Translations under genes and position numbers: made by a program | The notes under the pieces: model-generated | What the model was told of the DNA's origin: nothing | What the model saw: the letters and a program-made list of their open reading frames with translations, nothing else | Database searches by the model: none | In this document: positions 8,368 to 10,923 of the stretch, in pieces | Position numbering within the stretch: position 1 is the stretch's first letter | How the letters are laid out: each line of letters starts with the position of its first letter | Assembly: GCA_030424645.1 (NCBI GenBank) | Contig: JAUHWP010000003.1 | Location: forward strand, 1-64,000 | DNA: 64,000 bases | Source: Alphaproteobacteria bacterium | Lineage (GTDB): Bacteria; Pseudomonadota; Alphaproteobacteria; Rhodobacterales; Rhodobacteraceae | Direction: 5' to 3'

Positions 8368-8394
8368 TTGACGCCCCTTCCCCCCCCTCATAAT
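8368..8394 (+). promoter_or_regulatory. Candidate ilvIH promoter
   Basis: TTGACG (8368-8373) and CATAAT (8389-8394) with a 15-nt, C-rich spacer lie 68 nt upstream of the leader peptide. The spacing is short, so this is a tentative call. Bases 8211-8367 otherwise hold nothing I can assign beyond AT-rich sequence. Confidence 0.35.
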
Positions 8395-8461
8395 GTCGCG
8401 CCACTATTGTCACAAAGCCCCACGGGCAAACCCGAAGGGCAAGGCCAAGGAACATGTTGCA

Positions 8462-8509
8462 ATGAGCGGCATCCTCGTACTTGTAAGGAAATGGCGCATG
8501 GGCCGGTAA
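8462..8509 (+). CDS. Branched-chain amino acid leader peptide (attenuation)
   Basis: A 15-codon reading frame, MSGILVLVRKWRMGR, has an AAGGAAC ribosome binding site at 8447-8453. Codons 4-8 read Ile-Leu-Val-Leu-Val (8471-8485), using GTA twice and CTT, codons that are uncommon in this GC-rich DNA. It lies just upstream of an antiterminator/terminator pair and of ilvI, whose product starts branched-chain amino acid synthesis. This is the classical design in which scarcity of Ile-, Leu- or Val-tRNA stalls the ribosome and allows read-through. It is too short for ordinary gene finding. Confidence 0.85.
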   Translation: MSGILVLVRKWRMGR

Positions 8510-8558
8510 CGGAACCATATTGGATCCCCATGCGCCCCCGAAAATCGGGGGCTTTTTT
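8493..8558 (+). promoter_or_regulatory. ilvIH transcription attenuator (antiterminator and terminator)
   Basis: GGCGCATGGG (8493-8502), inside the last codons of the leader peptide, is perfectly complementary to CCCATGCGCC (8527-8536). The 3' arm overlaps the 5' arm of a strong terminator: GCCCCCGA (8534-8541), loop AAA, TCGGGGGC (8545-8552), then six T. The two stems are mutually exclusive. A ribosome that reaches the stop codon (8507-8509) would cover 8493-8502 and let the terminator form; a ribosome stalled at 8471-8485 would leave it free to pair and allow read-through into ilvI. Confidence 0.88.
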
Positions 8559-8588: not shown

Positions 8589-10343
8589 ATGACACGTCAG
8601 ATGACCGGAGCGAAAATGGTGGTGCAGGCCCTGAAGGATCAGGGTGTCGACACAGTATTCGGGTATCCGGGGGGCGCTGTCCTGCCGATCTATGACGAGA
8701 TTTTTCAGCAGAATGATATCCGGCACATACTGGTCCGCCACGAACAGGGCGCGGTGCATGCCGCCGAAGGCTATGCCCGCTCGACCGGCAAGCCCGGCGT
8801 TGTTCTTGTGACATCAGGCCCCGGCGCCACCAACGCGGTGACGGGCCTGACCGATGCGCTTCTGGATTCCATTCCCATCGTCGTGCTGACCGGACAGGTG
8901 CCGACCTTCATGATCGGCACTGACGGGTTTCAGGAAGCCGACACCGTGGGCATCACGCGCCCCTGCACCAAGCACAACTGGCTGGTGAAGGAAACCGACA
9001 AGCTGTCGGACGTGATCCATCAGGCCTTTCACGTGGCGACCACCGGCCGCCCCGGCCCGACACTTGTGGATATTCCCAAGGACGTGCAGTTCGCCACCGG
9101 CGACTATACCCCCCCCGCCAAGGCGGAAACCGGGCACTATGCCCCGCAGATCCGGGGGGATATCGACGCCATCACCGAGCTGGTGGCCGCGATGGAAACC
9201 GCGAAACGGCCGGTTTTCTATACCGGCGGCGGCGTGATCAACTCTGGCCCCGAGGCCTGCCAGTTGCTGCGCGAACTGGTGGATGCCACCGGCTTTCCCA
9301 TCACCTCGACCCTGATGGGGTTGGGCGCTTATCCGGCCAATGGCGACAACTGGCTGGGGATGCTGGGGATGCACGGGCTTTATGAAGCCAACATGGCGAT
9401 GCACGACTGCGACCTGATGATCTGTGTCGGCGCCCGGTTCGACGACCGGATCACCGGGCGCATCGACGCCTTCAGCCCGGGTTCGAAAAAGGCGCATATC
9501 GACATCGACCCCAGCTCGATCAACAAGGTCATTCATGTCGAGATCCCGATCATCGGCGATGTCGGACATGTGCTTGAAGACATGTTGAAAATCTGGAAAG
9601 CCCGCGGGCGCAAGACCGATGCTGACGCGTTGTCCGGCTGGGGCGCCAAGATCGACGAATGGCGCGCGCGCGATTGTCTGGCCTATCAACCGGACGACAA
9701 GGTCATCCAACCGCAATACGCGATGGAACGGCTTGAGGCGCTGACCAGGGACAAGGACCGCTATGTCGCGACCGAGGTCGGTCAGCACCAGATGTGGGCC
9801 GCGCAGCTCATGGGGTTCAACGACCCCAACCGTTGGCTGACCTCGGGAGGCCTTGGCACGATGGGATACGGCCTGCCCGCGTCGCTGGGCGCACAGATCG
9901 CACATCCCGACGCCTTGGTGATCAACGTGGCCGGCGATGCAAGCTGGCTGATGAACATGCAGGAAATGGGCACCGCCGTGCAGTTCCGTGCGCCGATCAA
10001 GCAGTTCATCCTGAACAACGAACGGCTGGGCATGGTGCGCCAGTGGCAAGAGCTGTTGCACGGCGAACGATACAGCCATAGCTGGTCGGAAAGCCTGCCC
10101 GATTTCGTGAAACTGGCGGAAGCCTTTGGCTGCAAGGGCCGGCAGGTGTCCGATCCGGCGGAACTGGACGACGCCATTCAGGAAATGCTGGATTATGACG
10201 GCCCGTTCATTCTGGACGTTCTGGTTGAAAAACACGCCAACTGCTTCCCGATGATCCCATCGGGCGAGCCGCATAACAAGATGCTTCTGGGCGAAGCCGA
10301 GACGCAGGGCGTCATCGGTTCCTCGGGCGCGACGCTGGTTTAA
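8589..10343 (+). CDS. ilvI: Acetolactate synthase large (catalytic) subunit
   Basis: A 584-residue ThDP-dependent enzyme condensing pyruvate with pyruvate or 2-oxobutyrate, the first common step of valine, leucine and isoleucine synthesis. Domains in order: N-terminal ThDP-binding region with FGYPGGAVLPIYD and the catalytic Glu in RHEQGAVHAAEGYAR; central FAD-binding-type domain; C-terminal ThDP pyrophosphate domain with GDASWLMNMQEMGTAVQF and LNNE. The ATG at 8589 follows GGAGAG and matches family starts (MTRQMTGAKMVVQAL); upstream in-frame codons overlap the attenuator. ilvH follows 13 nt downstream with AGGAGG. Confidence 0.96.
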   Translation: MTRQMTGAKMVVQALKDQGVDTVFGYPGGAVLPIYDEIFQQNDIRHILVRHEQGAVHAAEGYARSTGKPGVVLVTSGPGATNAVTGLTDALLDSIPIVVLTGQVPTFMIGTDGFQEADTVGITRPCTKHNWLVKETDKLSDVIHQAFHVATTGRPGPTLVDIPKDVQFATGDYTPPAKAETGHYAPQIRGDIDAITELVAAMETAKRPVFYTGGGVINSGPEACQLLRELVDATGFPITSTLMGLGAYPANGDNWLGMLGMHGLYEANMAMHDCDLMICVGARFDDRITGRIDAFSPGSKKAHIDIDPSSINKVIHVEIPIIGDVGHVLEDMLKIWKARGRKTDADALSGWGAKIDEWRARDCLAYQPDDKVIQPQYAMERLEALTRDKDRYVATEVGQHQMWAAQLMGFNDPNRWLTSGGLGTMGYGLPASLGAQIAHPDALVINVAGDASWLMNMQEMGTAVQFRAPIKQFILNNERLGMVRQWQELLHGERYSHSWSESLPDFVKLAEAFGCKGRQVSDPAELDDAIQEMLDYDGPFILDVLVEKHANCFPMIPSGEPHNKMLLGEAETQGVIGSSGATLV

Positions 10344-10356
10344 GGAGGGTCTGTAA

Positions 10357-10923
10357 ATGTCTGCACTCAAGATCAAAAAAGGCTCTTCGCGCAAATCGGC
10401 CTATGACCTGCGCGATCCGAATGCCGATATCATCGAACGCCATACGCTGGCGATTGTCGTCGACAACGAGGCCGGTGTTCTGGCCCGTGTGATCGGCTTG
10501 TTCTCGGGACGCGGTTACAACATCGAAAGCCTGACCGTGGCCGAGGTCGACCACCTGGGCCACCTGTCGCGGATCACCATCGTGACCACCGGCACACCCG
10601 CCGTGATCGAACAGATCAAGGCACAGCTTGGCCGGATCGTTCCTGTGCATGACGTTCATGACCTGACCGTCGAAGGCCCCGCCGTGGAACGTGAACTGGC
10701 CCTGTTCAAGGTCGCAGGATCGGGCGACAAGCGGGTCGAAGCCCTGAGGCTGGCCGACATCTTCCGCGCCAATGTGGTCGATTCCACACTGGACAGCTTC
10801 GTTTTTGAAATCACGGGAACCACGGAAAAGATCTCGGCGTTTTCCGAACTGATGCGACCGCTTGGCCTGATCGAAGTCGCCCGCACCGGGGTCGCCGCCC
10901 TGTCGCGCGGCACGCCCGAGTAA
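10357..10923 (+). CDS. ilvH: Acetolactate synthase small (regulatory) subunit
   Basis: A 188-residue regulatory partner of the upstream large subunit that confers valine feedback inhibition. An ACT domain is clear at about residues 27-100 (HTLAIVVDNEAGVLARVIGLFSGRGYNIESLTV), followed by the C-terminal ALS_ss domain with ERELALFKV and the SFVFEITGTTEKISAF segment. The N-terminus has an extra basic extension (LKIKKGSSRKSAYDLRDP) as in many alphaproteobacterial versions. It shares the attenuated transcript with ilvI. A hairpin with an 11-bp stem (10939-10949/10956-10966, one G-T pair) lies 15 nt after the stop but lacks a T run. Confidence 0.95.
   Translation: MSALKIKKGSSRKSAYDLRDPNADIIERHTLAIVVDNEAGVLARVIGLFSGRGYNIESLTVAEVDHLGHLSRITIVTTGTPAVIEQIKAQLGRIVPVHDVHDLTVEGPAVERELALFKVAGSGDKRVEALRLADIFRANVVDSTLDSFVFEITGTTEKISAFSELMRPLGLIEVARTGVAALSRGTPE

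What the first reader, a model, noticed from the sequence alone, without database searches (positions are those of the whole stretch)
8462..8558. Ribosome-mediated attenuator of ilvIH with an ILVLV leader peptide
The sequence shows a complete set: a ribosome-bound 15-codon peptide with five consecutive branched-chain codons (two of them GTA), a perfect 10-bp antiterminator whose 5' arm lies in the final leader codons, and a strong terminator sharing three bases with the 3' arm. Unlike the four-segment trp design, only two stems are seen, and the translating ribosome itself would block the antiterminator.
Basis: partly seen in the sequence, partly recalled or inferred. Interest (0 to 1): 0.75.

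Follow-up and report, generated by a model that had tools for sequence, protein, structure and literature searches.

The report
Branched-chain attenuator before ilvIH
A marine bacterium switches on its genes for making isoleucine, leucine and valine by letting a ribosome stall on a tiny run of those same codons in front of the genes; this is a well-preserved example of a known kind of switch, with an unusually small overlap between its two RNA hairpins and close cousins found in front of a drug-efflux-type transporter gene in other bacteria.

Summary
A 15-codon ORF (MSGILVLVRKWRMGR*, 8462-8509) with five consecutive Ile/Leu/Val codons, a perfect 10-bp stem A (8493-8502/8527-8536) and an intrinsic terminator (8534-8558) sharing three bases lie directly before ilvI-ilvH. 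The genus is Aliiroseovarius. The reading as ribosome-mediated attenuation is supported. A covariance model finds the element in 130 of 150 Rhodobacteraceae genera, almost always just upstream of ilvI. The codons stay Ile/Leu/Val, strongly biased to rare GTA and CTA, and all stems show compensatory changes. It is a member of a known kind: alphaproteobacterial ilvIH attenuators were predicted in 2004, and attenuation of Caulobacter ilvBN was reported in 1994.

(1) The stop codon sits in the apical loop of a covarying hairpin inside stem A. (2) Stem A captures only about 3 nt of the terminator, against 5-9 nt in five E. coli attenuators, and essentially none in five divergent genera, so exclusion by alternative pairing cannot be the whole story. 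(3) The same RNA, mostly Val-rich, precedes a Bcr/CflA-type MFS transporter gene in about ten other alphaproteobacterial families and four Rhodobacteraceae; one copy matches Rfam "sRNA" Atu_C8. Regulation was not measured.

The parts
8368..8396 (+). Putative promoter: TTGACG (8368-8373) and a CATAATGT -10 region (8389-8396)
   Evidence: Sequence; GTTGACGCC...CATAATGT is conserved at this place in the other Aliiroseovarius species. The transcription start was not mapped.
8462..8509 (+). Leader peptide ORF, 15 codons + TAA: MSGILVLVRKWRMGR*
   Evidence: the I/L/V run is conserved in 93 analysed leaders, mostly 5 codons.
8471..8485 (+). Regulatory codons ATC CTC GTA CTT GTA (Ile Leu Val Leu Val)
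   Evidence: In leaders of the family GTA is 50% of Val codons and CTA 33% of Leu codons; in five CDSs of the window GTA is 4.6% of 197 Val codons and CTA is absent from 287 Leu codons.
8493..8502 (+). Stem A (antiterminator), 5' arm GGCGCATGGG, inside leader codons 11-14
   Evidence: pairing 94% of cells over 48 leaders, with two compensated pairs.
8503..8512 (+). Hairpin B, CCG-GUAA-CGG, with the UAA stop codon in its loop
   Evidence: All three pairs show changes on both sides. The stop codon falls in a hairpin loop in 57 of 94 unique interiors, against 21 +/- 4 in shuffles.
8527..8536 (+). Stem A, 3' arm CCCATGCGCC; its last 3 nt are the first 3 of the terminator
8534..8558 (+). Intrinsic terminator GCCCCCGA-aaa-TCGGGGGC + T6
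   Evidence: four of eight pairs have changes on both sides, 95.6% of cells paired.
8589..10343 (+). ilvI, acetolactate synthase large subunit (regulated gene)
   Evidence: NCBIfam PRK09107, 1117.4 bits, cut-off 974.
10357..10923 (+). ilvH, acetolactate synthase small subunit (regulated gene)
   Evidence: NCBIfam PRK11895, 219.7 bits, cut-off 119.

Best explanation
This is a ribosome-mediated transcription attenuator of the ilvIH operon that reads the charging of tRNA-Ile, tRNA-Leu and tRNA-Val. When these tRNAs are charged, the leading ribosome runs through ILVLV to the UAA in the loop of hairpin B. It thereby covers and melts the 5' arm of stem A, so the terminator forms unhindered and transcription stops before ilvI. 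When a branched-chain amino acid is short, the ribosome stalls on one of codons 4-8, upstream of stem A. Stem A, which is made before the terminator's 3' arm, then folds and holds the bottom of the terminator's 5' arm, so RNA polymerase reads on into ilvIH. There is no protector stem, so a leader that is not translated at all should read through (default ON). Shown here: the anatomy, its conservation, codon choice and covariation. Inferred: the switch itself, its direction, and how a 3-nt overlap suffices. My preferred inference for the last point is that competition acts exactly at the terminator base, whose last pairs drive release, helped by the bulk of stem A next to the RNA exit channel.
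For: Exact anatomy. Element in 13/13 genus genomes and 130/150 Rhodobacteraceae genera by covariance model, with only five hits away from ilvI. The I/L/V run is kept while the codons vary, with enrichment of rare GTA and CTA. In 72 of 93 leaders stem A starts 7-8 nt after the last branched-chain codon of the run. Compensatory changes in stem A and hairpin B (5 of 13 pairs, 0/500 shuffles) and in the terminator (4 of 8 pairs, 0/500). Divergent genera have different-sequence stems in the same place, for example GCGCAGTCGC/GCGACTGCGC in L052 and GCGCGGG/CCCGCGC in L060 and L103. With the 5' arm masked the terminator's bottom pair forms with P about 0.98; with it free, 0.38. Ribosome-profiling work shows a translated leader CDS before Caulobacter ilvIH and cites Tarleton, Malakooti and Ely 1994 for ilvBN attenuation (PMC4117421). 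An ilvIH cis element in S. meliloti is credited to Vitreschak et al. 2004 (PMC2573895).
Against: Stem A captures only about 3 nt firmly (about 4 with partial pairing) of the terminator 5' arm, against 5-9 in E. coli thr, leu, trp, ilv and his leaders. In six divergent genera there is a 2-5 nt gap instead of an overlap, and in five of them almost nothing is sequestered. By the usual footprint, a ribosome stalled on the last GTA would itself cover the three shared pairs and remove the competition. No expression, read-through or ribosome-profiling data exist here for this organism. Equilibrium folding cannot decide, because it favours the terminator even in the proven E. coli cases.
Confidence: 0.88

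Rival explanations
1. Proximity antitermination. Stem A is not mainly an alternative pairing partner. It is a looped-out spacer (or an adjacent rigid helix) that brings the stalled ribosome, and itself, against the RNA exit channel just when the terminator should zip, so the terminator is blocked sterically.
For: Stem A abuts the terminator without sharing bases in six divergent Rhodobacteraceae genera (+2 to +5 nt), in ilvI leaders of other families (about +5 to +7, L016, L134, L137) and in the MFS leader L110 (+8). With stem A looped out, the P-site of a ribosome stalled on the last branched-chain codon lies 35-43 nt (median 39) from the seventh U, close to the 41-47 nt reported for the factor-assisted expressome and a little beyond the 26-34 nt of collided ones (PMC10953045). 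A closely trailing ribosome is known to prevent terminator hairpins (abstract of PMC5021804).
Against: The distances were not predicted beforehand, and geometry of this kind fits many designs. Most family members do share 1-3 bases. Nothing mechanical was measured.
Confidence: 0.25
2. The leader RNA or its peptide also works in trans, as rnTrpL and peTrpL do in Sinorhizobium, which would explain why stem A and the RMGR end hardly vary.
For: Stem A is far more uniform than hairpin B or the terminator in the same alignment. The 3' arm CCCATGCGCC persists in several MFS-linked leaders whose 5' arm no longer pairs perfectly. Atu_C8 is curated by Rfam as an sRNA. Precedent: rnTrpL and peTrpL (PMC7298713 abstract; PMC10117765).
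Against: Divergent genera have quite different stems and peptide ends (L052, L060, L063, L099, L103), so neither is essential to the basic function. Double coding plus pairing also slows change.
Confidence: 0.12
3. Chance or non-regulatory 5' UTR: a terminator of an upstream transcript with a fortuitous small ORF.
For: None beyond the general abundance of short ORFs.
Against: Conservation, codon class, covariation and position before ilvI in 130 of 150 genera.
Confidence: 0.01

Closest known systems
Branched-chain attenuators of alphaproteobacterial ilvIH/ilvBN (predicted by Vitreschak et al. 2004 FEMS Microbiol Lett 234:357; Caulobacter ilvBN, Tarleton et al. 1994 J Bacteriol 176:3765)
   Same: Same operon, same class of bacteria, leader with branched-chain codons before a terminator; translated leader CDS seen before Caulobacter ilvIH (PMC4117421).
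   Different: The two primary papers are not in the library, so their structures could not be compared base by base with this one.
E. coli ilvL (ilvXGMEDA) and the trp, thr, leu and his leaders
   Same: Leader ORF with codons of the product amino acid, stem in the leader competing with an intrinsic terminator, upstream of biosynthetic genes.
   Different: No protector stem; 15 codons instead of the 32 of ilvL; overlap of 3 nt instead of 5-9 sequestered nt; stop codon in the loop of the antiterminator hairpin.
Rfam RF02502 Atu_C8 ('Rhizobiales sRNA')
   Same: GCGCAUGGGC / CCCAUGCGC stem and an in-frame Val/Ile-rich ORF; a genuine member (L110, 98.8 bits) has leader ORF, stop codon in a hairpin loop and a terminator.
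   Different: The window scores 18.7 bits against a gathering score of 50. The one above-threshold hit found lies before an MFS transporter gene, not ilvI, and its terminator is 8 nt away from stem A.
uORFC-8-2 (cysS leader of Rhodobacterales, PMC8632094)
   Same: Short ORF with codons for the relevant amino acid plus two stems in the same order of bacteria.
   Different: Cys codons before cysS; another sequence.

Membership tests
Ribosome-mediated transcription attenuator | Short ORF with a start codon, conserved in frame | tested here: met
   15 codons in the window; ORF recovered in 93 analysed Rhodobacteraceae leaders.
Ribosome-mediated transcription attenuator | Run of codons for the product amino acids of the downstream operon | tested here: met
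   ILVLV before ilvIH; 83 of 93 leaders have an uninterrupted I/L/V run of 4-6 codons.
Ribosome-mediated transcription attenuator | Intrinsic terminator between leader ORF and first gene | tested here: met
   8534-8558; covarying.
Ribosome-mediated transcription attenuator | Antiterminator whose 5' arm the translating ribosome covers and which excludes the terminator | tested here: inconclusive
   The 5' arm lies in codons 11-14 and covaries, but overlap is only 3 nt in the window and absent in six divergent genera.
Ribosome-mediated transcription attenuator | Read-through rises when the cognate aminoacyl-tRNA is short | not testable with these tools
   Needs reporter or RNA-seq data.
trp-type four-segment attenuator | Protector (1:2) stem upstream | tested here: not met
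   No protector stem is conserved in the alignments; some relatives have very short 5' UTRs.
Alphaproteobacterial ilvIH attenuator (Vitreschak 2004) | Attenuator with branched-chain codons before ilvIH in Alphaproteobacteria | tested here: met
   Gene, class and codons agree; an S. meliloti ilvIH cis element is credited to that paper. The paper itself could not be read.
Rfam RF02502 Atu_C8 | Score at or above the gathering score of 50 bits | tested here: not met
   18.7 bits. Resemblance only; no filing under this family.
Any other Rfam 15 family | Gathering-score match | tested here: not met
   Only a tRNA in the 64-kb window.

The most novel reading that the evidence does not exclude
A family of attenuators in which antitermination does not rest on mutually exclusive pairing. 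A hairpin with the leader's stop codon at its tip, placed between stalled ribosome and terminator, blocks the terminator by nearness. The same module controls ilvIH in Rhodobacterales and a Bcr/CflA-type MFS transporter gene across Alphaproteobacteria (including what Rfam calls sRNA Atu_C8), so that a transporter of unknown substrate is tied to valine or branched-chain tRNA charging.
Probability: 0.22. Interest if true: 0.65.

Novelty: new member of a known kind. Interest (0 to 1): 0.42.

Why it matters
It adds a compact, near-universal branched-chain attenuator for Rhodobacteraceae, an abundant marine group, that no Rfam 15 family covers. The small or absent overlap between stem A and terminator gives a natural series (-3, -2, -1, +2 to +8 nt) for testing how a ribosome-controlled hairpin prevents termination. 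The shared leader before an MFS transporter predicts what regulates that transporter and suggests that a catalogued 'sRNA' is a terminated attenuator leader.

Tried and rejected
Equilibrium folding as proof against mutual exclusion: stem A lowers terminator formation only to P 0.38, but the same calculation favours the terminator in five proven E. coli attenuators at every ribosome position, so it was dropped in favour of counting terminator 5'-arm bases sequestered before the 3' arm is made. First thought that Atu_C8 is the rhizobial ilvI leader: wrong for the one above-threshold hit, which lies before an MFS gene while ilvI is on another contig; the weak hits G338 and G398 are ilvI leaders. 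Looking for leaders upstream of ilvI across the class by ORF alone gave only a handful of clear cases (L016, L127, L134, L135, L137, L145); my terminator finder failed on many others, so absence there is not shown. Other copies in the window's own genome: only one, with incomplete assembly. The R1 hit G141:C6 (L324) has no start codon and no transporter behind it and is taken as a false positive. Literature searches for a Val-rich leader before an MFS gene in Alphaproteobacteria found nothing, within an open-access library only.

Full report
What is there. One search shows, on the + strand: a putative promoter (TTGACG 8368, CATAATGT 8389), an ORF of 15 codons (8462-8509, MSGILVLVRKWRMGR*), stem A (8493-8502 with 8527-8536, 10 perfect pairs), a terminator (8534-8541 with 8545-8552, then six T) and ilvI from 8589, followed by ilvH from 10357. 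NCBIfam confirms both genes. Folding energies are 2.3 (leader) and 3.2 (terminator) standard deviations below shuffled sequence.

Where it lives. The contig lengths of G004 and G006 equal those of Aliiroseovarius halocynthiae and A. zhejiangensis records returned by a pattern scan, so the window's genus is Aliiroseovarius. All 13 genomes of the genus have the element. An exact pattern for its core (CGCATGGGCCGGTAACGG...CCCATGCG) returned at least 118 stretches in a collection of 84,980 species; those listed are from Rhodobacteraceae or records consistent with that family.

Conservation test. I took ilvI in 150 Rhodobacteraceae genomes of different genera, read about 100 upstream regions and aligned 48. 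A covariance model built from them finds the element in 130 of 150 genera. Comparing positions by eye, all hits but five lie directly upstream of ilvI; a few genomes had no ilvI position to compare. In 93 leaders the longest I/L/V run is 5 codons in 65, 6 in 10 and 4 in 8. GTA makes up 50% of Val codons and CTA 33% of Leu codons in the leaders, against 4.6% and 0% in five CDSs of the window: rare codons, as expected of a charging sensor. Stem A starts 7 or 8 nt after the last codon of the run in 72 of 93 leaders.

Covariation. Over 48 distinct leaders, stem A plus hairpin B has five of 13 pairs with changes on both sides (none of 500 shuffles reaches this), and sliding the partners destroys the pairing (92.8% down to 27-57%). 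The terminator has four of eight such pairs, 95.6% of cells paired. Divergent genera, left out of that alignment, carry stems of other sequence in the same place (L052, L060, L063, L099, L103).

A third element. Inside stem A a small hairpin carries the leader's stop codon in its loop: CCG-GUAA-CGG in the window. All three pairs covary. In 94 unique interiors the stop codon is in a hairpin loop in 57, against 21 +/- 4 after shuffling around a fixed stop codon; the sequences are related, so this is not a strict probability. Unrelated hairpins in other lineages do the same, for example GAACC-UGA-GGUUC in L134 and CUGGC-CUGAC-GCCAG in L137. A ribosome that finishes the peptide therefore stands on the tip of the hairpin it has just opened.

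How it would work. The standard logic of attenuation fits: stalling on codons 4-8 leaves stem A free, reaching the stop covers its 5' arm. No protector stem is seen, so an untranslated leader should read through. The weak point is exclusion. Before the terminator's 3' arm exists, E. coli antiterminators hold 5 (trp), 6 (leu), 7 (ilv), 8 (his) and 9 (thr) bases of the terminator's 5' arm; the window holds three firmly (expected value 4.4 with partial pairing), the main clade a median of 3.9 and five of six non-overlapping genera at most 1.3. A simple equilibrium calculation cannot be used as evidence either way, because it favours the terminator in the E. coli cases as well. Two accounts remain: competition at the very base of the terminator, where the last pairs matter most, or blocking by nearness of stem A and the stalled ribosome. 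The nt distances fit the second (median 39 nt from P-site to the seventh U with stem A looped out, compared with values in PMC10953045), but that is suggestive only.

A wider family. A class-wide search with the same model found 11 hits outside Rhodobacteraceae, in about ten families; none is before ilvI and all are directly before an MFS transporter gene. Two of those transporters were tested and meet NCBIfam's Bcr/CflA cut-off. The leaders include MNPKSVVVVVSRRCMVR*, MHILIVVVGERRLDR* and MNTGVVLVGSRRMDR*. Four Rhodobacteraceae carry a copy there too (L323, L325, L326, L327). Not every relative of the transporter gene has it. The only genome above the Rfam threshold for Atu_C8 has that RNA before the same kind of gene. 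So Atu_C8 is probably a terminated attenuator leader; PMC3738593 notes that 32 Agrobacterium sRNAs from the earlier sequencing study look like parts of long 5' UTRs, but I found no statement about C8 itself.

What is known. Branched-chain attenuation before ilvIH or ilvBN in Alphaproteobacteria is known: Caulobacter (PMC4117421 citing Tarleton et al. 1994) and the comparative prediction of Vitreschak et al. 2004, credited for S. meliloti ilvIH in PMC2573895 and cited for Gram-negative bacteria in PMC6123439. From memory, the abstract of the 2004 paper states the prediction for alphaproteobacterial ilvIH outright; neither primary paper could be opened (for Tarleton). The finding is therefore a new member of a known kind. 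What I did not find described are the stop-codon hairpin, the small or absent overlap, and the MFS branch.

Limits. No expression data; genomes without names outside the genus; the sample of other orders is thin and my terminator finder missed many; counts of sequences are not counts of independent events.

Noticed in passing
L307-L317, L110 (downstream ORF about 50-130 nt after the leader RNA); L323, L325, L326, L327: The same leader RNA with mostly Val-rich ORFs precedes a Bcr/CflA-type MFS transporter gene in about ten other alphaproteobacterial families and in four Rhodobacteraceae. The substrate is unknown; regulation by valine or branched-chain tRNA charging is predicted.
   Followed up: partly
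L110 1501-1620: Rfam RF02502 Atu_C8 (98.8 bits), curated as an sRNA, has an ORF MMQVSVVVGRRMGKAA* with its TAG in the loop of GGCGGC-GUA-GCCGCC and a terminator: it looks like a terminated attenuator leader.
   Followed up: partly
window 8493-8502 / 8527-8536 and relatives: Stem A is much more uniform in sequence over Rhodobacteraceae than hairpin B or the terminator, and its 3' arm persists in MFS-linked leaders whose 5' arm has mismatches; pairing alone does not explain this.
   Followed up: no
L016, L127, L134, L135, L137, L145 (ilvI upstream regions outside Rhodobacteraceae): ilvI leaders with unrelated sequence, mostly with the same plan: branched-chain codons, hairpin with the stop codon in its loop, separate terminator a few nt downstream. 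In L135 the start codon may lie at the transcription start (leaderless).
   Followed up: partly
L331, L334, L336, L338, L339: Close relatives of the MFS transporter gene (53-66% identity) without any such leader, so the leader has been gained or lost several times.
   Followed up: no
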